Shown one piece after another: positions 1,622-57,017 of a DNA stretch of 57,441 bases (the first letter of the stretch is position 1; each line of letters starts with the position of its first letter). The notes beneath the pieces are model-generated. The model had not been told where the DNA came from and did not search any database. It saw nothing but the letters and a program-made list of their open reading frames with translations. Origin of the DNA: a virus. Location of the stretch: IMG/VR virus record IMGVR_UViG_3300020445_001222, positions 1 to 57,441 of that record; one strand, given 5' to 3'. The translations under genes and the position numbers were made by a program.

Positions 1622-2443
1622 TTACTTTCCGTCCTGAAAGAACTCCAATCCTTCGGAGAATCCAAAATCATCTCCAGGACCAAGTAAAGCATCATCTATT
1701 GTATCAATAACACCATCGCTATTTTTATCTTCTGTTGCTTTTGGTGTAACTGTATACCTCATTTCTCTCTTAGCAGTTACTGGATCAGTATTAGTATAGT
1801 AATCAACTTCAACTTTCTTGATAAGACCTTCAGGACTATCAGCGATTTTACCGAATAGATATGTCTTAGCAGTAAAGTTTAGTGTGTAAATAAGTGCTCT
1901 TCTTGTAGAAAAATCTCCTTCATAATCATCTATAAAAGAAACATTATTTAAAACTATTGGAATATCTCTTTTTTCTCCAATAGATTTAACTAGATCAATA
2001 GTTACATTAAGAGATGGTTGAAAGAATGGTAATATCTGTTCTACGATTTGTAATGCATCATCATTTAACTTACAATATACATTCAATTCAAATCCAATAT
2101 TGTATGGAACAGGCATATAAACTTTTCTCATTGTTGAAGATGCTGTATCAACTGCTCTGAATGTTTGAGTCATTCCTGTCTTTCTTGTTCCATCATAAGT
2201 TAAAGATGTCATTTCAAAAGACATTCTTGGTAAAGATATTGCTACTGCCTTATTTAAATCTGATTGTTGAGTTAATCTTGCTAAAAATTTCTGTCTTGGG
2301 GCATATGCTAATGGAACCCTCATTTCATCAACAACATCATCCGTCTGTCCATCATAATGCTTAATATGAATATTATTAAACAATGTTCCGAAAGATACAA
2401 TGCTCTTTCTCATTATTTCGTGGTAGTAATGACTTCCTAACAT
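1622..2443 (-). CDS. 15: Tail sheath stabiliser and completion protein gp15
   Basis: 273 aa, the same size as T4 gp15 (272 aa). The N-terminus (MLGSHYYHEIMRKSIVSFG) and the following FNNIHIKHYD are characteristic of the family, which forms the ring joining the tail terminus to the neck. The start overlaps the gp14 stop. No insertion or truncation is apparent. Confidence 0.93.
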   Translation of the reverse strand: MLGSHYYHEIMRKSIVSFGTLFNNIHIKHYDGQTDDVVDEMRVPLAYAPRQKFLARLTQQSDLNKAVAISLPRMSFEMTSLTYDGTRKTGMTQTFRAVDTASSTMRKVYMPVPYNIGFELNVYCKLNDDALQIVEQILPFFQPSLNVTIDLVKSIGEKRDIPIVLNNVSFIDDYEGDFSTRRALIYTLNFTAKTYLFGKIADSPEGLIKKVEVDYYTNTDPVTAKREMRYTVTPKATEDKNSDGVIDTIDDALLGPGDDFGFSEGLEFFQDGK

Positions 2444-5400
2444 TATACTTCGCCAAATGGGTTAACTTCTGTAAAATCTAAAATCATATCTGCTTCTCCT
2501 TCAAATAGATCATTTTGATTATAATCATCTATATTCTGAACTGAACCTGCTGCAGGTACTTCAGAGAGTAACATATACTTATCTAAAACATATATAGCAC
2601 CCGAAGACTGTCCAATAATATTTTCTCCTACATCAAATGTTCCATTTTCTTGTCCAATTTGAAGAACACCTTCTTCCTGGTCCCAATTCTTAACTCGTGC
2701 ACTTACACTAGAACTTGCACCAATAACAACCTCATTGAACCAGAATGTTCCTATTCCTGCATTTCCACCAAGTGCTGCTGGATCTTGTACCAATACCGTG
2801 CAAGGTCCGAGATAACCTGCACCTGGACTGGTGATATTAATACGTTCAATATCATTTGCTGTATCATCAAGAACAACAACACCAGTGGCAGTTGAGAATC
2901 CAGATTGTCCATCCCTATCACCAATAGTATTAGCAATACTTACTGTAGGTGGCACAGTATATCCAATACCTGTTTTAGTAAATGTTATACTATCAATCAC
3001 TCCATCAAGACCAACATTTCCATATCCCTCTGCTGTTTGTCCAAGTGGAGCATCAATAGTTACACTAGGAGCAGATAGATATCCTCCACCCATAGTTAGA
3101 ATTTCAAATTCGCTTATCTGTCCATAACCATTTAATTTTGCTCTACCTGTTGCTGTAAATTCAGTAGCAGTTCCAGTTGGATCACTAACCACAATAGTAG
3201 GTGTAGTTAGATAACCAGCACCTGAAGATGCGATAGAAACTGTATTTACAAATCCTTCGCTAATAGTTGCTGTTGCTGTTGCTCTAAAATTAGTTGCAAC
3301 ACCAATTGGTGTATCTATAATTGCAGAATTTACAGCAGTTACTATTCCTGTTAAAGTAGAACTACTATTAACAAGAGATGCCACTTCTCCATTTTCAATA
3401 GTTGTATCAATACTTAATTCTTGCTCAGAACCTATTTGATTTTCAAAATCATCATAAGTTACTGTATCAGAATCTACAGTATATGAGGAAATGCCACTAG
3501 ATGGTGGTGTTGATGAAGCAGACCCAATAATAATAGTTGAGAATATATCATCTACAAAAATACCACTATTATAGGAGTTCTTTAAAATAGGTGGTGTTAA
3601 ATTAGCATTAGTTATCAGTTCTTTATCTCCTGCTAATGGGAAGAATACACTTGAATAATCTCCACCATCTACTGATAGAGAAATTTTCTGAGCACCAAAT
3701 TCATTCTTAGATTCTACGTAAGCATAATGCCAAGCATCATCTCTTACAGATCCACCAACAGTAGATGCAACAGATACTGTTCCAATACCCAATTCAACAT
3801 TTCCATTGGTGTTTATTCTTAAATTAGTATCTTCTGCTTTACTACCATTACTATCTTTATTTAATTCTAAGAATGTTGAAACACCTGTTGTAGAACTTTG
3901 AGTTTTAAAGAATAATTGAACAGCACCTTCTGCACCAATAGTAGTTTGATTTCCTTTCCATGTTAAATTTCTATCGCTATCAGCATCAATTAATTTCCAT
4001 GCTACTGTTCCAAATCTTGGAGAAGTGGCATCAAATCCTGCAGATAATGTAAGATATTTGATAGTAAGTGTTGGTGGACTTAGATAATATCTACCTACAC
4101 TAGTTAAACTATAAGAGAATGTAGATATCCCAAGATTTGATGTGAATGTTGTATTAGCAGTTGCTGTAGATGCAATTCCTGTAGGAGAATCAATTGTTAA
4201 TATTGGATTTCCAACGTAGAATTGTCCAGAAGAAGCAATTGATACAGTCTCAAGGTTTTCATTTGCATTTATTGTAGCACTAACGACTGCAGTAGATCCA
4301 ACTCCAGTAGGAGCAGAAAGTGTTACAGTAGGTTCTACACTATATCCTATACCCGCATTACCAACTGAAAGACTTACTAATTTTTCATTTGCAATTGCTG
4401 TATTTGCTGTTGCTTGTACAAATCCAGAACCAGATGGTGGAGTTATTGTAACACCTATCTTCCCATCTGGATCATAGTTACTTCCACCACTACTTAAAGA
4501 TATTCCAGTAACTATATTATTTGCTACTACTGCTGTTCCTGCTGCCCCAGTATAAGTTGGAGATCCAAAGGTTATTAGAGGAACATCAGTATAACCATTT
4601 CCAGAAGAAATAACATTTGCTCTAGTTACACCTTGCCTATAAGTTTCAATACCTGCAGTTGCAGCTGCACCAACACCTCCACCTCCAGAAATAGTAATTG
4701 TAGGTTCTGAAAGATATCCTTTACCAGCATCAGTCAATACAATTTCTTTTATTGACCTCTGTCCTCCGATGGATGTTGTAATAGCAACTGCAGTAGCAGT
4801 TCTACCACTAGCAGGTGCTGCTGAAAATGTTACTGTTGGTGTTGAATAATAACCATATCCATCATTATCCAAATGTACATTTCTTACATAACCAGTTGCC
4901 ATATCAACACCGATAGTAGCAGTATTTCCATAACCAATCATCTTAAGATTGATAATTTCTCCAACATTAGATACTTTAGTATCAATTGCTTCTATACCAG
5001 TATCAATAACCTCATTTTCATATTCAAATAATTCACACTGAAGTTCATAAACATAATTCTTTTGTAATTGGTAGAATGGATTCTCATGTTCTACAAATTT
5101 TACTTCAAAAAATCTACCACCTAATGGGAAGTATATTAAATCACCCTCTCTAGGTCTATGTGCAAGTTCTGTTTCATATGCATCTCCCATTGCTAAAAAT
5201 GGTGCAATATAGTCTTCCCATCTTTCCTTAGATATAGTTACAACCAATTCATCCTTGAGTTGCATACCAAATTTGGTTAATACATCTCCACCACCTGTAT
5301 ATCCATCATATGTGTTTACATATGCTTCTATTAAAAAATTATCATCAAATTCTGAACTTTGTACTTCCTGAAAAACTTGTTTTCTATTTTTTATTTCTCT

Positions 5401-5511
5401 AGGTAAATAATAAACCTCAATACCAAACATCCTCAACTGTTCGTTGATGAGATCTTGTACAAGTCTTTGTTCTGATGCAGATCCTTGAAGGAAGAATGGA
5501 TTTAATGGCAT
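2443..5511 (-). CDS. 14: Neck protein gp14 with a large repeat insertion
   Basis: 1,022 aa against about 256 aa for T4 gp14. The first roughly 180 residues (SEQRLVQDLINEQLRMFG, EVYYLPRE, GDLIYFPLGGRFFEVKF, YVYELQCELFEYENEVI) and the last 30 (ADMILDFTEVNPFGEV) are gp14-like. Between them lie about eight to ten copies of a glycine-rich beta repeat of the form GxGYxxxPTVTI..GxGAxATA, plus a lectin/laminin-G-like stretch around residues 490-640 (LTWKGNQTT, LSVDGGDYSS). The insertion may decorate the neck collar. The start overlaps the gp13 stop. Confidence 0.9.
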   Translation of the reverse strand: MPLNPFFLQGSASEQRLVQDLINEQLRMFGIEVYYLPREIKNRKQVFQEVQSSEFDDNFLIEAYVNTYDGYTGGGDVLTKFGMQLKDELVVTISKERWEDYIAPFLAMGDAYETELAHRPREGDLIYFPLGGRFFEVKFVEHENPFYQLQKNYVYELQCELFEYENEVIDTGIEAIDTKVSNVGEIINLKMIGYGNTATIGVDMATGYVRNVHLDNDGYGYYSTPTVTFSAAPASGRTATAVAITTSIGGQRSIKEIVLTDAGKGYLSEPTITISGGGGVGAAATAGIETYRQGVTRANVISSGNGYTDVPLITFGSPTYTGAAGTAVVANNIVTGISLSSGGSNYDPDGKIGVTITPPSGSGFVQATANTAIANEKLVSLSVGNAGIGYSVEPTVTLSAPTGVGSTAVVSATINANENLETVSIASSGQFYVGNPILTIDSPTGIASTATANTTFTSNLGISTFSYSLTSVGRYYLSPPTLTIKYLTLSAGFDATSPRFGTVAWKLIDADSDRNLTWKGNQTTIGAEGAVQLFFKTQSSTTGVSTFLELNKDSNGSKAEDTNLRINTNGNVELGIGTVSVASTVGGSVRDDAWHYAYVESKNEFGAQKISLSVDGGDYSSVFFPLAGDKELITNANLTPPILKNSYNSGIFVDDIFSTIIIGSASSTPPSSGISSYTVDSDTVTYDDFENQIGSEQELSIDTTIENGEVASLVNSSSTLTGIVTAVNSAIIDTPIGVATNFRATATATISEGFVNTVSIASSGAGYLTTPTIVVSDPTGTATEFTATGRAKLNGYGQISEFEILTMGGGYLSAPSVTIDAPLGQTAEGYGNVGLDGVIDSITFTKTGIGYTVPPTVSIANTIGDRDGQSGFSTATGVVVLDDTANDIERINITSPGAGYLGPCTVLVQDPAALGGNAGIGTFWFNEVVIGASSSVSARVKNWDQEEGVLQIGQENGTFDVGENIIGQSSGAIYVLDKYMLLSEVPAAGSVQNIDDYNQNDLFEGEADMILDFTEVNPFGEV

Positions 5512-48937: not shown

Positions 48938-49111
48938 TTAAACAAGGAACTCATCCTTGTAGTAATCAACTGTAACCTGCATTTTGGTAGCCTCCTTAAC
49001 TAAACTGTTATAATATTCTTGTCTCTGGTTCCACTTGATAATTTCAAGTTCAGATCGAATCATATAACTCCTCATTAGTTCTACAAATTGTTCAATTTCT
49101 TCATCATTCAT
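48938..49111 (-). CDS. 57-aa helical partner of the halogenase gene
   Basis: MNDEEIEQFVELMRSYMIRS then ELEIIKWNQRQEYYNSLVKE. It overlaps the halogenase stop in ATGAATGA, so it should be made in step with the enzyme. It may be a flavin-delivery or stabilising partner, but that is only inferred from coupling. Confidence 0.7.
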   Translation of the reverse strand: MNDEEIEQFVELMRSYMIRSELEIIKWNQRQEYYNSLVKEATKMQVTVDYYKDEFLV

Positions 49112-50876
49112 AAGTAACGAAACCTTTGGGTCTTTGTTTCCATTTTTGTTTCTTATCTCTCTGAGACAATGGAATACCTTTTCTCTTTTCTTTTTTTACC
49201 TTTTCTTTAATACGATTAGGCATTTGATCATATATCCCTTGTGGCACATTATCTTCTGTCCCAACAAAAGTCATATCCTCATTTGATCCGTGTATATTCT
49301 TAGATAAGTATTCATAAAGAGATGGACAAGTATCTGCATAAATTATATATTTTTGTTGAGTATCTTTATATAATTGATCTAACCTATCACAATGCGTATC
49401 TGGATCAAATTCTTTCAAGACTCCCAATGCTCTATGTAATTTCGCATCAATTGGAGAATAATTCATTCCTGCAGCAATAACAGGGAACCCTGCGTTACCC
49501 TCAGTATACTGATGATACTTATGTGTAGATATAGCATAGTATAACAATTCAAGATTCTCTCCCATGTCAGTTTCATAGTTTAATGAATTATTAACTGTTG
49601 GGTCAATTCTTACTCTCTCTGTTACATCCTGCCAGTATGGTGTATCATCTCTTGAACTCAATGCATAGTGCATACCAACAAAGTTTGCATGTCCATAGAA
49701 AACATTTGTAAGTGCATGGTTAAGTGAATCTCTATCCCACTGATTAACAAAACCTTTACGTAATATGGAGATTAATGATAACAACCATTCATATGTGGTC
49801 ATTAATCCTGTACTCTCTAATGGTTCAACAAATCCACTTGATAAACCAATTGCAACTACATTCTTCTCCCATACCTTTTCATGTATTCCATTTCTCATTG
49901 TAATGGGTTTGAATTCAAGATCCTCAATAGGGATATTATCATAACGTGTGCGGATGTAATCCTTGAACTCATCAAGAGCTTCATCATCACTAATATACTT
50001 ATCACTATAAACATACCCTGCACCAATACGTGACCATAAAGGTATGTTCCATGCCCATCCATTGTTGAGAGCAGTACAATTAGTATATGGTTGTAACTGA
50101 TTATTTTTATCTGTATATGGTATATGAGTTGCCCATGCTTTATTATTTGGAATTATATTCTCAATAGTATTAAATTTAACTCCCAATGCCTCCTCTAACA
50201 ACAAACTCTTGAAACCAGTGCAATCAATGTATAAATCAGCAGTTAATTTCTGTTTATCTGATAAAACCAGAGACTCTACTCCATCATCATTTGTATTAAC
50301 CTCTTCAACTGTAGAATTAATTAACTTTACACCCTTTGGAAGACATACTTTCTTTTTAAGATATTGTCCAAATGCGGTAGCATCAAAATGAAATGCAGTA
50401 TCAGTTGCAAAGGAAAAACCAGGTGTCTTACCAGTGCTATCATCAGACATTTTATTGCTCTCTGCAACTGCTGTAATAGGATAATGGCAACGTGAGTATG
50501 AATTACTATCAAGACCACCTCTATTTCCTTTTAAAAACCACCAATCGTTTGGTCCTACTTGTTCTATTGGTCTTTGGAACTCTCCAAATGGATAATGAAA
50601 TCCTCCTGTATCTTTTCCCAACCAATCTGTAAATTTAATGCTTAATTTATAACTACCATCTATCTCTGTTAGAAAATCTTTATCAGTAAGACCTATCAAT
50701 GATGTCCAATGTTTTATACCACCAAGAGTACTCTCTCCAACCCCCAATGTAGGAAAGTCGGGACTCTCAATGATGGTAACATCCATCTTTGGAAACTGTG
50801 TTGCAAATGTTGCAGCAGCCATCCAACCAGATGATCCACCACCTACGATGCATACACTCTTAATCTTTTTGCTCAT
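49104..50876 (-). CDS. FAD-dependent tryptophan-halogenase-family protein
   Basis: 590 aa, a little longer than PrnA (538 aa). GGGSSGWMAAATFATQFP (residues 12-29) is the FAD-binding dinucleotide fold. SYKLSIKFTDW (about 80-90) carries the lysine that in PrnA binds the chlorinating species. GWAWNIPLWSRIGAGYVYS (about 271-289) is the GWxWxIP signature that separates halogenases from mono-oxygenases. FVEPLESTGL (about 351-360) carries the conserved glutamate. The C-terminal 30 residues are basic. The substrate may be tryptophan or another indole or phenol; it needs FADH2 from a host reductase. Confidence 0.88.
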   Translation of the reverse strand: MSKKIKSVCIVGGGSSGWMAAATFATQFPKMDVTIIESPDFPTLGVGESTLGGIKHWTSLIGLTDKDFLTEIDGSYKLSIKFTDWLGKDTGGFHYPFGEFQRPIEQVGPNDWWFLKGNRGGLDSNSYSRCHYPITAVAESNKMSDDSTGKTPGFSFATDTAFHFDATAFGQYLKKKVCLPKGVKLINSTVEEVNTNDDGVESLVLSDKQKLTADLYIDCTGFKSLLLEEALGVKFNTIENIIPNNKAWATHIPYTDKNNQLQPYTNCTALNNGWAWNIPLWSRIGAGYVYSDKYISDDEALDEFKDYIRTRYDNIPIEDLEFKPITMRNGIHEKVWEKNVVAIGLSSGFVEPLESTGLMTTYEWLLSLISILRKGFVNQWDRDSLNHALTNVFYGHANFVGMHYALSSRDDTPYWQDVTERVRIDPTVNNSLNYETDMGENLELLYYAISTHKYHQYTEGNAGFPVIAAGMNYSPIDAKLHRALGVLKEFDPDTHCDRLDQLYKDTQQKYIIYADTCPSLYEYLSKNIHGSNEDMTFVGTEDNVPQGIYDQMPNRIKEKVKKEKRKGIPLSQRDKKQKWKQRPKGFVTYE

Positions 50877-51910: not shown

Positions 51911-52801
51911 TTAAATACCTCTATCCTGTGTACTTTCATCTACGATGGTATCTAATTCAGATAACTTTGGATACATTCCTTTAAATGTATCTGCATTTTG
52001 TTTCTGTTTTTTCATAGCATCGTCCAGTTCTATTCTACCTGTAGTTTGATTAAATTGCAATAGCATTTTTCTACCTGCTGATTTAGCATCTTTTCTAAAC
52101 TGTTCTGATAAACCAGTTGTATCATTTGAAAATGTAGTTACATGATCACTTAACCATCCAGTACATACATACTTACTACCCTTAGTAACAATATCTCCTC
52201 TATGGTGAAAATACCATGAAGCAGGGAAACAAATTAATTTACCCTGTTTTGGTGCCACACTGAATATATCATCCTTTCCTGGTCCTACTCTAAATTGTGT
52301 TTCTCCACCAGAAAAATCATCATTCAGATACCACATATATGTGAATAATCTTCTTGCACATAGAACACTTCCAGAATCTGTGTATCCTCTTAAAGGGAAT
52401 ACAATTGTATCTAAAATTGGAGAAACATCATCATCAGCATGCCACCCATATCCTTCTCCAACATTAGTCCTTTGTATTTGATATCCAGAGTCAACTAAAT
52501 CTCCTTTTGATTGAACATCATCACCTAATCTTTCTTTTATGAACATTAGATATTGTTTTACATGGGGAGAAAGTTTCTCAAAAAAGTAATGATCATATTC
52601 TTCCCACTCTGGCCATTGAGATATCCATAAATCAGTTGATTTTTTGATGCTCTCTTGGGTAGCTTTTCCCTCAGTATCAGCTGCTGTAATACCCTTACTC
52701 TTACGCTGATCATATTCAAACTTATCAATGATCTCTTTACATTTATCTGCAGGTATTACATCATCATACTCTGCTATCATGTCAGAAAAATTAGTTATCA
52801 T
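51911..52801 (-). CDS. Fe(II)/2-oxoglutarate oxygenase, prolyl-4-hydroxylase-like
   Basis: 296 aa. YGWHADDD (about residues 119-126) is the HxD motif, and FTYMWYLNDDFSGGETQF (about 153-170) is the P4H-type core strand. WYFHHRGDIVTKGSKYVCTGWL (about 197-218) supplies the distal histidine and the lysine that binds 2OG, the lysine form being usual in prolyl hydroxylases. A basic helical tail of about 70 residues follows. The N-terminal helix (DVIPADKCKEIIDKFE) is family-like. Confidence 0.85.
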   Translation of the reverse strand: MITNFSDMIAEYDDVIPADKCKEIIDKFEYDQRKSKGITAADTEGKATQESIKKSTDLWISQWPEWEEYDHYFFEKLSPHVKQYLMFIKERLGDDVQSKGDLVDSGYQIQRTNVGEGYGWHADDDVSPILDTIVFPLRGYTDSGSVLCARRLFTYMWYLNDDFSGGETQFRVGPGKDDIFSVAPKQGKLICFPASWYFHHRGDIVTKGSKYVCTGWLSDHVTTFSNDTTGLSEQFRKDAKSAGRKMLLQFNQTTGRIELDDAMKKQKQNADTFKGMYPKLSELDTIVDESTQDRGI

Positions 52802-53322
52802 GTTAATGTATCACCTTTTGTTAAATTAAATGCTAAAATTATTCTTCTTTCCATTACAGGTGGACTGAAATGATATATTTCTGGATCCCAAATCAATACA
52901 TCACCACATTCAACTTTAGAAGTTGTTGTATTACATCGATGTAATGGATCTTGAAAATAAGTAGATTGTCCTTCTGTTAAGAACAAACAACCAGAACCAC
53001 TTATATTTGTTCCTGCATGATTATGTATTGGATGAAATCCACCAGGTTCATATACTTGAACCCAAGAATTATCAAATGCTTCTGGGGGAGCTAAAGGTTC
53101 TAACACTTTGTAAATCCAAGGAACTACATGTGCTCGGTTATTTGAACCATAAGTTGTCCAAAGTCTGCCATGATCAATGTACTTCCCATACTTCTTACAC
53201 CATTCCTCACATTTATCAATCCACCCCTCTGGGATGGAAATGTTATCCTTAATAATAATTGAAGGTGGGAAAAGTTGATGATGCTTTGTACCTTCTTTCT
53301 TTTCTTCAATTTCTTCAGTCAT
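52798..53322 (-). CDS. Fe(II)/2-oxoglutarate oxygenase, 2OG-FeII_Oxy_5 type
   Basis: 174 aa. GGFHPIHNHAGTNISGSGCLFL (about residues 94-115) carries the metal ligands, and YHFSPPVMERRIILAFNL (about 151-168) the distal histidine and 2OG arginine. It lies directly between the methyltransferase subunit gene (8-bp overlap ATGACTGA) and the P4H-like oxygenase (ATGA overlap), so it is locked into the same transcript. Confidence 0.82.
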   Translation of the reverse strand: MTEEIEEKKEGTKHHQLFPPSIIIKDNISIPEGWIDKCEEWCKKYGKYIDHGRLWTTYGSNNRAHVVPWIYKVLEPLAPPEAFDNSWVQVYEPGGFHPIHNHAGTNISGSGCLFLTEGQSTYFQDPLHRCNTTTSKVECGDVLIWDPEIYHFSPPVMERRIILAFNLTKGDTLT

Positions 53323-53719
53323 AAAATACCTCTAATCCAACTGGTTCTCCGAAACTATAATCATAAGTTAATGCATCATGACAAACATAATGCGGATGAT
53401 CGGATTCTACACCCAATCTCTTACACAATTCAAGATGATTATCCTCCATAAGTTCTACTGCATACAACATATTGTTTAATATGTGTTCCTCATCATGATA
53501 CTGCAGTAATATATTTTTAAGAGTAACTAAAAAGTTACCACTACCTGCTGAATTATCTATGAAAGTAGAATTGGGGTTCTTTTTTATATCATCTGGTATA
53601 TCATTTATTATTCTAACACAAATATCCATAGGTGTAAACACTTCGCTAGTAGCGTTTATCCTATCATCCGATCTCTCAATTGCAGATCCTACACTTTTAT
53701 TATGGTCGTTTCTCTTCAT
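53315..53719 (-). CDS. Split N6-adenine methyltransferase: SAM-binding (motif X-I-II-III) subunit
   Basis: 134 aa. TSEVFTPMDICVRII (residues 24-38) is motif X. FIDNSAGSGNFL (53-64) is motif I, the SAM-binding loop. LYAVELMEDN is motif II and HYVCHDALTYDY is motif III. The protein stops just where the catalytic NPPY (motif IV) should come, and that motif is instead found at the C-terminus of the upstream gene. The pair overlaps by ATGA. It is expected to work only as a complex with the 1,039-aa protein. Confidence 0.78.
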   Translation of the reverse strand: MKRNDHNKSVGSAIERSDDRINATSEVFTPMDICVRIINDIPDDIKKNPNSTFIDNSAGSGNFLVTLKNILLQYHDEEHILNNMLYAVELMEDNHLELCKRLGVESDHPHYVCHDALTYDYSFGEPVGLEVFYD

Positions 53720-56700
53720 AAAATATCAGGAATAGTTCTGAATAATTCTTTTGAGTTAGTATTAACTATTCTGTTCTTTAGAACCATTTGATGTACCTTA
53801 TCAGATCTTAAATAATCTGCAAGTTTGTTACTATCTTCTTCCGAAGATGTTTTTATAATAACTGTAGATCCACTGATAGCATGATCATATGGTTTAATAC
53901 GAACTTGTCCAAAACCTTGTCCACCATATTTACTATTCATTACAACTCCATGTTGATTAACACAACAAGTATACTGAGACTTATCAACATTAGTAACTTG
54001 CATCTCTCCATTTTTACCACCCATTGTGGTTATCATAGGATACTCCCCCTCAATCAACTGATTTAAGTTCAAATCTCCACGTTGATAACGATGTCCCATA
54101 TTGTTAGGAACATCTGAAACAAAATCTGGATTAGTAAATCTAATGCAAGTATCAGCAGTAATTTGAATATTCTTTACTGTACCATCAAGATAGGTTAATT
54201 TTGTTGTACCAGTATACCCACGTTTCCATGTACAGATACATGTTTCTGTCATTGATATAGATGGAAATGTATCAGGAGATAATGCTTCAATAGAAACAAT
54301 ACCTGGTGTTGAAAACAAAGTTCTTCTAAACTTTGATGTGGATTTGGCAAAGTGTTTTGATCTGATTACTTCTGATACATAATCAGACCTATTCATTGCA
54401 TTTAGATAGAAATGTGTATCTAAAGTTTTTGCACATCCACCTGTGGTTGCACCTGTTACTGTAGATGTATCCGTATATGGTGGATTGCCAACTGTCGCAC
54501 TAAATTGCATATTGTAATTAGAAAGATCGTCAGTTACATTAATTTTAGCATTAATCTGCTTTATTGCATAGTGATGTGTAGGATCATTCTCCCATACCAC
54601 TATATCATCAGGTTCCCAATCCTTATTCTCTATTGCATATAAAGAATGAAGTCCAGAGGGATCTCCATGTATATACAACTTTTCAGTTGTATACTTTTTT
54701 AAAGGAATTATTCTATCAAGAATATCTAATGAAAGTGTCTTTTGATTCTTCCTAGTAGTTGCAAGTTTCTGTAAAGTTCCACATTCATCTTTAGACATAG
54801 AATGTTCTATATCTACAATCCCTTGATCGATTCTATTAATCCATGATTTAGGTATAACCTTCTGATCTAAACAAGTCTTAATAATACCAGTAGTATCTCC
54901 TGTATCATGTTTATAATATTCTGAATTAAGAATACTATCCACACTTTTAGGTGTTGATTTATTCTTAATCATATGAAAGATGACTAATCCTATTCTCTCC
55001 ATATATGCTTGAATAGTCTCTGTCTTCTGTGCTATCTCAGACTTATCATAGTGTGTAGAAAATTTAGATGAACTGGTAAGTTTCTTATTACTCTTTGCGT
55101 TAGCATTGTTCTCATTTACTGTAAAAGAACTCCATGAAGATAACTTTGCACTCTTCTGAAAGTTATCAAATTCAATGTCTCCTAACTTAAGAAAATCTAA
55201 TTGAGATACAATACCTGATATTAAAGATACTGCACTGTCTACATCATTAGATAAGATTTCATTTAGACGTTCTGGAGTTACTTCTTCAAAATCAGAGAAG
55301 TATTCAAAGATAGGAACTAAATCAAGAAGTTCATACTCAGATTCTGTTAACTCATGATTCAAATCACATGCAGTAAAATACATGTTTCTGATTGTAGTAA
55401 AACAACGTTCTGGACAAAAATCAATTACATCCCAAGAGTTTCTCTTTGTGGATCCACCACGAAAAGCAAACTGTGTCCATTGTTCTCTTGATGATCCTTC
55501 TGCACAATTCATAACAGTATCAATACCTTCTGCAGTTAAACCAAGAACATTTGCAGTTTTAGTTAAAATAACTGTAGATGTATTAGTATCAATATGTGAT
55601 CGGATTGTATCAGAATTTTCTCTAGTATCTGAAGTTACAACTAATGGTTTAAATCTTGTTGATTTAAAATAATCTACAAGTGCATGACATGATGCCATAG
55701 AAGGCAAAGTTATCATTATATGTCTAGAATTCTTTAATATTCTTTTGTTATACTTTATTCCATCTTGAGTAAAAACTTTACTCATAAATTCATCAACTAA
55801 TATTGGTTCAACAAAATCATCTTCATCCTTGTTTACCCTAAAAATGTTACCCATCGCATCAGGATCATCTCCATACAAATCTTGATATTTACTAGACTCA
55901 TACTTTGCAAGAATCAATCTCATCTGTGGAGAATTTGCATACTCTTTTATACCTTGCAGTCTATACAACTGCTCCTCAAAGTATGAATATACAAATCTAA
56001 ATCTAGGAAAATCCTCTAAGATTTTATTTGCAGTTCCTGAGACATACAATACTTTTGTATCAAAGTGATCTCTAAGACTTATCCATTGATCTCCCTCATA
56101 TCCAAGATGTGCTTCATCAAATACTATCAGATCAATATTACAAGGTAAGTTTTTATATCTGTTAGGAGCTTGAATAGTTGAATATAAAACTATCTGTTTA
56201 TTAGTTCCCATCCAATACTCTATCTCACTCTTAAACTGATCTACCTCTCCATCACGAATATCAATGAATACAATATTATCAAAGTTTTTAAACTCTTGGG
56301 AATCATCTCTCCATGATTGTTTAGGAGAGTTTCTATATGAAACAACTAAGGATACTTTAACACCACTCTCTACAATAGAGGAAAGAACCATTGTAGATTT
56401 ACCTGCACGACACTTAGCAAATAACAAATACTCTTTCCATTCATCCCATGTTGAAGTTATCTCAGATACAAACTCTTCCTGATGTTTGCGAAGTTTACGA
56501 TATTCTTTTTCCTCTACATTATCTGTAAAGAACTCTTCTTCAATAAGATCCTTAACAACGTCGATACTTAAACCATAACCTTCTTCAATTCTAAAGGTCT
56601 CTCTACCAGTTTGTGTAATACCACGTTGTTTTTTTAACCATCTATGTATCTTATGATCTCTACCATCAAAATCTGTCCACCATCCTCTCTTTATTCTTGC

Positions 56701-56835
56701 ACTACCAACTGCTGCTAAATCTTGCTTTGACTTACCATAATCTCTACCTTTATGTCTATCTTTATATGTGGTTGTGGTTTCTCCTAAACCAAAGGCAGAC
56801 GGATTACCTTTAAACCCGTCAAGGTAAATGTTCAT
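53716..56835 (-). CDS. DEAH helicase fused to methyltransferase motif IV/target-recognition half, possible GIY-YIG-like N-terminus
   Basis: 1,039 aa. Residues 1-85 (GLGETTTTYKDRHKGR, KIHRWLKKQR...GRETF) resemble the second half of a T5orf172/GIY-YIG domain, with R27, H64 and E79 as candidate active residues; this is uncertain. A superfamily 2 helicase follows: RKHQEEFV Q-like motif, Walker A CRAGKST (142-148), FDEAH box (239-243), SGTANKI motif III and a degenerate WTQFAFRGG motif VI near 458. The catalytic VGNPPYTD of an N6-adenine methyltransferase is at about 782-789, followed by a target-recognition-like region. No motif I is present here; it is supplied by the next gene. Confidence 0.78.
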   Translation of the reverse strand: MNIYLDGFKGNPSAFGLGETTTTYKDRHKGRDYGKSKQDLAAVGSARIKRGWWTDFDGRDHKIHRWLKKQRGITQTGRETFRIEEGYGLSIDVVKDLIEEEFFTDNVEEKEYRKLRKHQEEFVSEITSTWDEWKEYLLFAKCRAGKSTMVLSSIVESGVKVSLVVSYRNSPKQSWRDDSQEFKNFDNIVFIDIRDGEVDQFKSEIEYWMGTNKQIVLYSTIQAPNRYKNLPCNIDLIVFDEAHLGYEGDQWISLRDHFDTKVLYVSGTANKILEDFPRFRFVYSYFEEQLYRLQGIKEYANSPQMRLILAKYESSKYQDLYGDDPDAMGNIFRVNKDEDDFVEPILVDEFMSKVFTQDGIKYNKRILKNSRHIMITLPSMASCHALVDYFKSTRFKPLVVTSDTRENSDTIRSHIDTNTSTVILTKTANVLGLTAEGIDTVMNCAEGSSREQWTQFAFRGGSTKRNSWDVIDFCPERCFTTIRNMYFTACDLNHELTESEYELLDLVPIFEYFSDFEEVTPERLNEILSNDVDSAVSLISGIVSQLDFLKLGDIEFDNFQKSAKLSSWSSFTVNENNANAKSNKKLTSSSKFSTHYDKSEIAQKTETIQAYMERIGLVIFHMIKNKSTPKSVDSILNSEYYKHDTGDTTGIIKTCLDQKVIPKSWINRIDQGIVDIEHSMSKDECGTLQKLATTRKNQKTLSLDILDRIIPLKKYTTEKLYIHGDPSGLHSLYAIENKDWEPDDIVVWENDPTHHYAIKQINAKINVTDDLSNYNMQFSATVGNPPYTDTSTVTGATTGGCAKTLDTHFYLNAMNRSDYVSEVIRSKHFAKSTSKFRRTLFSTPGIVSIEALSPDTFPSISMTETCICTWKRGYTGTTKLTYLDGTVKNIQITADTCIRFTNPDFVSDVPNNMGHRYQRGDLNLNQLIEGEYPMITTMGGKNGEMQVTNVDKSQYTCCVNQHGVVMNSKYGGQGFGQVRIKPYDHAISGSTVIIKTSSEEDSNKLADYLRSDKVHQMVLKNRIVNTNSKELFRTIPDIL

Positions 56836-57017
56836 TGTCTCCTAATAAAAAACACGTGGGATGTTAGTTCTTTCTTCGGTTGCGAACCGAGAGGCACATC
56901 CATCTCCTCGTTTATTGGTGGAGGAAAACAAAACTGAGGGGACAGTGCATTACCTTAACATCATGTCTCTGCTTCTAAGTCAGAGTAGTTAGGAACCTCG
57001 TTTGTTTTCCTGTAAAT
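56836..57017 (-). other. Structured leader RNA of the helicase/methyltransferase operon
   Basis: About 175 nt between the promoter and the ATG, with no reading frame. A perfect 10-bp inverted repeat, GGAAAACAAA (56923-56932) with TTTGTTTTCC (57001-57010), is extended by GAGG/CCTC and encloses a CTCTG/CAGAG hairpin (56967-56985). Nearer the gene is a TCGGTT/AACCGA hairpin (56876-56890). CCTCGTTT occurs twice (56906, 56996), allowing alternative pairing. It does not match any riboswitch I know. Confidence 0.55.

What the first reader, a model, noticed from the sequence alone, without database searches (positions are those of the whole stretch)
53315..56835. Split, motif-permuted helicase-methyltransferase with a possible nuclease-like N-terminus
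In ordinary amino-methyltransferases of this type the order is motif X, I, II, III, then NPPY (IV) and target recognition, in one chain. Here the helicase protein ends with NPPY plus a target-recognition-like region and has no motif I. The next gene (ATGA overlap) is a 134-aa protein with motifs X-I-II-III and no NPPY. The coding order is thus helicase - IV/TRD // X-I-II-III, the order of a circularly permuted enzyme broken by a stop/restart. With a GIY-YIG-like segment at the N-terminus it would be a single-operon translocating modification or restriction system carried by a phage. Reasonable roles are self-protection against host restriction, exclusion of rival phages, or attack on host DNA.
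Basis: partly seen in the sequence, partly recalled or inferred. Interest (0 to 1): 0.88.

Follow-up and report, generated by a model that had tools for sequence, protein, structure and literature searches.

The report
Split phage DNA methylase, swappable target half
In this marine T4-like phage the enzyme that would methylate adenines in DNA appears to be cut into two genes: a small, conserved half that binds the methyl donor and a second half, here fused to a helicase, that recognises the target; related phages keep the small half and swap the other, which could let them change methylation specificity by exchanging one gene module.

Summary
The 134-aa gene (53315-53719, motifs X, I, II, III, no NPPY) overlaps by ATGA the end of a 1039-aa gene (53716-56835) made of an N-terminal domain, an SF2 helicase and a C-terminal NPPY/target-recognition half. 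It is not a frameshift: at least 358 viral contigs encode the 134-aa 'cassette', and 74 of 74 checkable IMG/VR copies (sample: 80 best) sit beside an NPPY half without motif I. These halves are very diverse and often start 5-8 residues before NPPY. Aeromonas phage Aeh1 carries both halves in one chain (NPPY-TRD-X-I-II-III). Phages lacking the cassette (ESCO37, XbC2) keep their own X-I-II-III in front of the same NPPY half. Within species S-CAM7 and ACG-2014f the NPPY/helicase/nuclease module is replaced next to a conserved cassette. ACG-2014f has two further NPPY halves 100 kb from its cassette. A close relative of the window lacks exactly the helicase module. Best reading: a two-subunit N6-adenine DNA methyltransferase with a shared SAM-binding subunit and exchangeable target subunits. 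The helicase and N-terminal domain are an optional add-on. GIY-YIG kinship is supported in relatives, not shown for the window; no activity has been measured.

The parts
53716..56835 (-). 1039-aa protein: N-terminal domain, SF2 helicase, NPPY/target-recognition half of an N6-adenine methyltransferase
   Evidence: phrog_22930 over aa 10-708, E 9e-192; phrog_3689 'DNA methyltransferase' over aa 718-1035, E 6e-13
56485..56835 (-). N-terminal domain (aa 1-117), possible diverged GIY-YIG/T5orf172 relative; catalytic state doubtful (YIG Tyr is Phe)
   Evidence: structure search negative
54736..56499 (-). SF2 helicase region (about aa 113-700; AKCRAGKS, FDEAH, SGTA motifs)
54512..57001 (-). stretch absent from relative L012, where the NPPY half stands alone: the optional helicase module, ending at the Met codon before NPPY
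   Evidence: blastn L012 against window
54505..54690 (-). degenerate Rossmann-like mini-domain (about aa 716-777, GDPSG...VWENDP), found before the NPPY half where this helicase is present
   Evidence: no profile similarity to the cassette
53719..54510 (-). NPPY/target-recognition half (aa 776-1039)
   Evidence: free-standing in L012-L015, 89% identical
54475..54486 (-). motif IV NPPY (aa 784-787)
53716..53719 (-). ATGA stop/start overlap
53315..53719 (-). 134-aa SAM-binding 'cassette' subunit (motifs X, I, II, III)
53630..53644 (-). motif X (EVFTP, aa 26-30), invariant in the family
53528..53557 (-). motif I (DNSAGSGNFL, aa 55-64)
53438..53464 (-). motif II (YAVELMEDN, aa 86-94)
53357..53383 (-). 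motif III region (CHDALTYDY, aa 113-121)

Best explanation
The two genes encode the two halves of one N6-adenine DNA methyltransferase. The 134-aa cassette is the SAM-binding half (strands 1-3: motifs X, I, II, III). The C-terminal 264 residues of the large protein are the other half (strands 4-7: catalytic NPPY plus target recognition). Translated from overlapping genes, they are inferred to assemble into one active Rossmann methyltransferase. The cassette is a conserved, shared subunit; the NPPY/TRD half is an exchangeable specificity subunit, so a phage can alter its methylation target by swapping or adding one module. In this allele the specificity half is fused to an SF2 helicase with an N-terminal domain probably related to GIY-YIG/T5orf172, an optional module likely to act on DNA lacking the mark. 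Most likely use: the phage marks its own DNA against host (and rival) restriction. Shown by sequence: the split, its conservation, the natural single chains, module swapping, dispensability of the helicase. Inferred: complex formation, adenine product, sharing of one cassette by several halves, biological role.
For: Cassette conserved at about 134 aa in 43 phage records and at least 358 IMG/VR contigs. NPPY half without motif I beside 74/74 cassettes, against 4/444 other ORFs. Complementary Pfam coverage: cassette N6_Mtase 26-93, several partners from about 103 on. Natural single-chain fusion in Aeh1-type phages (NPPY at aa 9-12, motif X at aa 294-298), whose N-part matches a separate S-CAM7 NPPY protein (E 1e-14) and whose C-part matches cassettes. 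Its profile maps to BseCI methyltransferase in permuted order. Its model's best PDB matches are adenine DNA methyltransferases, TaqI first, and viral matches include both the separate NPPY halves and the separate cassettes. Phages without the cassette (ESCO37, XbC2) carry the same NPPY half with its own X-I-II-III in front. P-SSM2-type halves start 5-8 aa before NPPY. Module swaps next to a conserved cassette in S-CAM7 and ACG-2014f. Two NPPY halves with one cassette in L074 and L135, L137, L138, L139. Orphan NPPY halves at 137 kb in 26/26 ACG-2014f records, all of which carry a cassette. Same specificity half with and without the helicase.
Against: No biochemistry. That model is moderate (pLDDT 76, pTM 0.66) and PDB TM-scores are low, as expected for a permuted chain but not proof. 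A degenerate Rossmann-like segment precedes NPPY in the window, so a cassette-independent role is not excluded there. One helicase+NPPY locus (L147) shows no cassette within 4.5 kb. ACG-2014f isolates are one species, so 26/26 is not independent evidence.
Confidence: 0.83

Rival explanations
1. The cassette is an independent SAM-binding or regulatory protein (for example a decoy against host methyltransferases), and the NPPY protein is a self-contained but diverged enzyme using its own GDPxG mini-domain.
For: A degenerate Rossmann-like segment precedes NPPY in helicase-linked forms. Some loci have two NPPY genes per cassette.
Against: Many NPPY halves have no such segment and start 5-8 aa before NPPY. 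Cassette and NPPY half are one chain in Aeh1-type phages. The mini-domain shows no profile similarity to the cassette. Single-chain homologues in cassette-less phages have a normal X-I-II-III there.
Confidence: 0.08
2. A full phage-borne restriction-modification system: helicase and N-terminal nuclease-like domain (or, in sister alleles, a separate PD-(D/E)XK-like nuclease and DEAD helicase) cut unmodified DNA of host or rival phages, while the split methyltransferase protects the phage's own DNA. This is an extension of the best explanation, not an alternative to the split.
For: Helicase always linked to an NPPY half. T5orf172 domains in relatives. LEM-3 GIY-YIG domains fused to NPPY halves in PSD9 and phi-ST2. 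Alleles with FEW-x2-E...G(I/V)DG...QxK proteins plus a DEAD helicase.
Against: The methyltransferase pair is common without any nuclease beside it. The window's N-terminal domain lacks the YIG tyrosine and the position of the usual glutamate varies, being Lys in the window. No fold match.
Confidence: 0.35
3. Pseudogene or sequencing artefact: one methyltransferase gene broken by a stop or frameshift.
For: Order and overlap resemble a broken gene.
Against: The same break point in dozens of diverse phages, 0 of 67 overlapping pairs in the same frame, purifying selection on both genes, and partner halves that are unrelated in their TRD.
Confidence: 0.01
4. The enzyme methylates RNA or protein rather than DNA (NPPY also occurs in HemK and rRNA methyltransferases).
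For: Motif IV alone does not tell the substrate.
Against: Closest solved relatives are adenine DNA methyltransferases (BseCI, CamA, TaqI, PacII). Variable recognition-like regions, helicase and nuclease-like partners point to DNA.
Confidence: 0.06

Closest known systems
Gamma-class N6-adenine DNA methyltransferases (M.TaqI, M.BseCI, CamA)
   Same: Motifs X, I, II, III, NPPY and a recognition region; sequence or fold matches of each half to this group
   Different: There one chain in order X-I-II-III-IV-TRD; here two genes with the cut between strands 3 and 4
Naturally split C5 methyltransferases M.AquI and M.EcoHK31I (PMC3404938)
   Same: One methyltransferase made of two polypeptides
   Different: Those are cytosine-C5 enzymes cut near motifs VIII-X with a fixed partner; here N6-adenine type, cut between SAM-binding and catalytic halves, with many alternative partners for one conserved subunit
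Type I HsdM/HsdS
   Same: Specificity changed by exchanging a subunit; overlapping, translationally coupled genes (PMC6158711)
   Different: HsdM keeps SAM binding and NPPF together and HsdS is pure recognition; here catalytic NPPY travels with recognition
Type ISP enzymes (LlaBIII, LlaGI) and Type IIG enzymes
   Same: Nuclease-like domain, SF2 helicase, methyltransferase and recognition region in one assembly
   Different: Those are one chain with a complete methyltransferase and a PD-(D/E)XK nuclease; here the SAM half is a separate, shared protein
Beta-class (IV-TRD-X-I) amino-methyltransferases
   Same: Linear order of motifs across the two genes and in Aeh1 p090
   Different: The EVFTP / D.SAGSGNFL / NPPY motifs and closest relatives are of gamma type; gene order varies among relatives
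phrog_4376, phrog_22930, phrog_3689, phrog_11371
   Same: Direct families of the cassette, helicase, NPPY half and single-chain fusion
   Different: Listed separately; three of unknown function, one as 'DNA methyltransferase'; no link between them is stated there

Membership tests
N6-adenine DNA methyltransferase (gamma type) | Motifs X, I, II, III for SAM binding | tested here: met
   all in the 134-aa protein; invariant E26-P30, D55, G59, G61, E89 across 10 relatives; N6_Mtase hit E 1e-3
N6-adenine DNA methyltransferase (gamma type) | Catalytic (D/N/S)PP(Y/F) | tested here: met
   NPPY at aa 784-787 of the partner
N6-adenine DNA methyltransferase (gamma type) | All motifs in one chain in order X-I-II-III-IV | tested here: not met
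   two genes in at least 74 loci; one chain only in Aeh1-type (order IV-TRD-X-I) and in cassette-less phages
N6-adenine DNA methyltransferase (gamma type) | m6A activity on DNA | not testable with these tools
   needs expression and methylation calling
Naturally split methyltransferase (M.AquI kind) | Both polypeptides required for activity | not testable with these tools
   only linkage, fusion and complementarity shown
Naturally split methyltransferase (M.AquI kind) | C5-cytosine chemistry | tested here: not met
   NPPY and all matches are amino-methyltransferase type
Type ISP / Type IIG restriction-modification enzyme | Nuclease, helicase and complete methyltransferase in a single chain | tested here: not met
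   SAM half in a separate gene; helicase itself a separate gene in many relatives
Type ISP / Type IIG restriction-modification enzyme | Sequence-dependent cleavage | not testable with these tools
   no assay
GIY-YIG / T5orf172 nuclease domain | Family profile match in the window's N-terminus | tested here: not met
   no hit in the window; hits in relatives L045, L060, L054, L026, L057 (T5orf172 E 3e-7 to 9e-5)
GIY-YIG / T5orf172 nuclease domain | Relationship by profile or structure comparison | tested here: inconclusive
   hhalign 87% probability, E 3.6e-6, with T5orf172-positive relatives; Foldseek finds nothing
GIY-YIG / T5orf172 nuclease domain | Catalytic residues (two Tyr, Arg, Glu) | tested here: inconclusive
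   IY tyrosine near-invariant, second Tyr is Phe, Arg mostly present, one Glu invariant (E79) and another position E/D/K
Type I HsdM/HsdS | Separate non-catalytic specificity subunit | tested here: not met
   NPPY is on the same chain as the recognition region

The most novel reading that the evidence does not exclude
A plug-in DNA methylation system. One conserved SAM-binding subunit is kept by T4-like phages as a platform, and any of a large pool of catalytic/target-recognition subunits, adjacent or elsewhere in the genome, single or in tandem, alone or fused to helicase and nuclease-like modules, docks to it to set the methylation specificity. Phages would then change or stack specificities by exchanging one gene module.
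Probability: 0.6. Interest if true: 0.87.

Novelty: new variant of a known kind. Interest (0 to 1): 0.8.

Why it matters
Split DNA methyltransferases are known as rare cytosine-C5 enzymes with fixed partners. Here the amino-methyltransferase fold itself is cut between its SAM-binding and catalytic halves, and the SAM half is shared by many unrelated target halves. If true, it gives phages a cheap route to switch or accumulate DNA marks against host restriction. It would explain a family of 'unknown function' in P-SSM2 and other T4-like phages, bring many overlooked adenine methyltransferases into annotation, and offer a natural two-part scaffold for programmable methylation. It makes directly testable predictions: closely related isolates should have different methylomes caused by one module.

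Tried and rejected
Frameshift artefact: rejected (conservation, selection, no in-frame overlaps). A first mixed alignment (A2) misaligned cassettes onto NPPY halves and was discarded. A GIY-YIG fold for the window's N-terminus was tested by structure and not supported, so it is kept only as a possibility from relatives. The mini-domain as a duplicated or degenerate cassette: no profile similarity. Cellular origin: the only hit among about 85,000 prokaryote genomes is one Rhodobacteraceae MAG contig carrying the same helicase neighbour, probably phage DNA. Literature searches of the open library found no description of this split; subscription papers and REBASE were not available, so prior description cannot be excluded.
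Full report
WHAT IS IN THE WINDOW. The window is a 57-kb IMG/VR virus record from a T4-like phage: its gp14-type neck protein is closest to P-SSM2, P-SSM5 and other marine cyanophage records. On the minus strand a 1039-aa gene (53716-56835) ends in ATGA with a 134-aa gene (53315-53719). The large protein has an uncharacterised N-terminal domain, an SF2 helicase (ResIII, aa 113-268) and a C-terminal Eco57I-like half with NPPY at aa 784-787. The small protein has motifs X (EVFTP), I (DNSAGSGNFL), II and III and matches N6_Mtase profile positions 26-93 and phrog_4376 end to end.

THE SPLIT IS OLD AND CONSERVED. Relatives of the 134-aa cassette occur in 43 phage records of marine Synechococcus and Prochlorococcus phages, with 43 invariant columns in 10 representatives, and in 358 IMG/VR contigs of which the best 80 were fetched. 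In that sample 74 of 74 cassettes with at least 700 nt upstream have, directly upstream or one small gene away, an ORF with an NPPY-type motif and no motif I; only 4 of 444 other ORFs of at least 150 aa in the same loci have such a motif. In 67 overlapping pairs the two frames always differ (49 by +1, 18 by +2), the pattern of translational coupling and not of a broken gene. The window and its near relatives show purifying selection on both genes. A scan of one genome per species for about 85,000 prokaryotes gave a single hit, in a MAG.

THE PARTNER HALF IS DIVERSE. NPPY partners range from 186-202 aa proteins starting 5-8 residues before NPPY (P-SSM2 gene 36) to 270-480 aa proteins and 1015-1120 aa helicase fusions. 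Partners match N6_Mtase from about profile position 103 on, the cassette positions 26-93: complementary halves of one family, cut between strand 3 and strand 4 of the fold.

NATURAL ONE-CHAIN VERSIONS. (i) Aeromonas phage Aeh1 p090 (415 aa) and relatives in Aeromonas T4-like phages have NPPY at aa 9-12, a recognition region, then motif X at aa 294-298, I, II and III. Its N-part matches a separate NPPY protein of a S-CAM7 isolate (E 1e-14) and its C-part the cassettes. The profile matches BseCI methyltransferase in permuted order. An AlphaFold model (pLDDT 76, pTM 0.66) finds adenine DNA methyltransferases as its leading PDB matches (TaqI, PacII, CamA, LlaBIII; E about 2e-3, low TM as expected for a permuted chain). 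Among viral models it finds both the free NPPY halves of S-CAM7 and ACG-2014f and the free cassettes of KpV477 and P-SSM2. (ii) Phages ESCO37 and XbC2, absent from the cassette hit list, encode homologues of the P-SSM2-type half that carry their own X-I-II-III in front of NPPY in normal order. Where the cassette is missing the half is complete; where the cassette is present it is not. (iii) Split pairs with more distant cassettes occur in Shigella phage PSD9, Klebsiella phage KpV477, Vibrio phage phi-ST2 and Lak phages.

MODULE SWAPPING. Three isolates of species S-CAM7 share 97-99% identical flanks, but the block next to the cassette is different in each and the homology resumes exactly at the cassette start codon. 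The three blocks are helicase + NPPY; two other helicase-like genes + NPPY; PD-(D/E)XK-like protein + NPPY + DEAD helicase. In ACG-2014f the cassette comes first and the block after it differs among isolates C16, C58 and US17. The order is therefore not fixed, and 'circular permutation' describes gene order here, although Aeh1 is a true permuted chain. Five loci have two NPPY genes and one cassette (L074; L135, L137, L138, L139). All 26 ACG-2014f records have an orphan 301-aa NPPY half near 137 kb (with a 248-aa half beside it in isolates read), and all 26 have a cassette near 36 kb; in C16, the isolate searched with the family model, that is the only one. This suggests, but does not prove, sharing in trans.

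THE HELICASE MODULE. A scan for the helicase gave 58 loci. Every complete copy is fused to or followed by an NPPY half, and every one but L147 has a cassette nearby. Three parts that appear as one-plus-one, or as three genes, thus form one functional set. It is nevertheless optional. Relative L012 has the same specificity half (89% identical over 263 aa) and cassette but lacks exactly the stretch corresponding to window 54512-57001, which ends at the Met codon before NPPY. A 60-aa GDPSG...VWENDP segment lies before NPPY in helicase-linked forms; it is not detectably related to the cassette, and its role, perhaps as helicase contact, is unknown.

THE N-TERMINAL DOMAIN. Relatives L045, L060, L054, L026 and L057 have significant T5orf172 (GIY-YIG clan) domains here, and enterophage and vibriophage NPPY halves carry LEM-3-type GIY-YIG domains. 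The window's own domain has no such hit. hhalign links it to the T5orf172-positive group (87%, E 3.6e-6), but a fair model (pLDDT 80) has no structural match in the PDB. The YIG tyrosine is Phe, and a usual acidic position is Lys in the window but Glu or Asp in its closest relatives. An active nuclease is not shown.

HOW IT MOST LIKELY WORKS. Shown: two complementary, co-inherited halves; natural fusions; swapping of the target half; purifying selection. Inferred: the halves assemble into one N6-adenine DNA methyltransferase, the cassette supplying SAM, the partner supplying catalysis and target choice; the phage uses it to mark its DNA; the helicase module acts on unmarked DNA or couples methylation to translocation. 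I put the split enzyme at 0.83, sharing of one cassette by several partners at about 0.6, and a true restriction function at about 0.35.

KNOWN OR NEW. Split C5 methyltransferases exist (M.AquI, M.EcoHK31I; PMC3404938). Permuted amino-methyltransferases and exchangeable HsdS subunits also exist (PMC6158711). A jumbo-phage survey lists cyanophage adenine methylases but, in the passages read, not this split (PMC7824862). No paper in the held library was found to describe it. I rate it a new variant of a known kind: a split amino-methyltransferase with a conserved SAM subunit and interchangeable catalytic/target subunits.

Noticed in passing
window 2443-5511 (-): T4-type neck protein gp14 (PF11649 at aa 4-173) is 1022 aa; tblastn matches P-SSM2 gp14 at both ends only, so it carries a large internal insertion.
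   Followed up: partly
window 49104-50876 and 51911-53322 (-): A 590-aa tryptophan-halogenase-like FAD protein and two 2OG-Fe(II) oxygenase-like proteins (52798-53322 matches PF13759) lie directly downstream of the cassette gene, the last overlapping its end by 8 nt.
   Followed up: no
L003:5439-6002, L049:2886-3458, L101:5485-6087, L109:2527-3138, L099:321-1055: About 190-240 aa proteins with FEW-x2-E...G(I/V)D(G/A)...QxK patterns, likely PD-(D/E)XK nucleases without a clear Pfam family, sit between NPPY half and cassette or next to them: candidate new phage restriction nucleases.
   Followed up: partly
L096:2029-3962, L098:1482-3447, L110:1337-3495: T4-like enterophages and a vibriophage have a GIY-YIG domain fused to an NPPY half, followed by an overlapping distant cassette; in KpV477 the large gene is broken in two.
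   Followed up: partly
L006, L101, L102, L004, L005, L109: Short 40-90-nt repeats (75-100% identical) recur between genes at the module borders and elsewhere; they may be promoters and sites of module exchange.
   Followed up: no
L001:8008-9198 and most P-SSM2-type loci: A second, separate 390-430 aa ResIII/DEAD helicase is very often just downstream of the cassette.
   Followed up: no
L102:5486-6022: ACG-2014f isolate US17 keeps the cassette but has only a 178-aa nuclease-like gene beside it; its NPPY halves are 100 kb away.
   Followed up: partly
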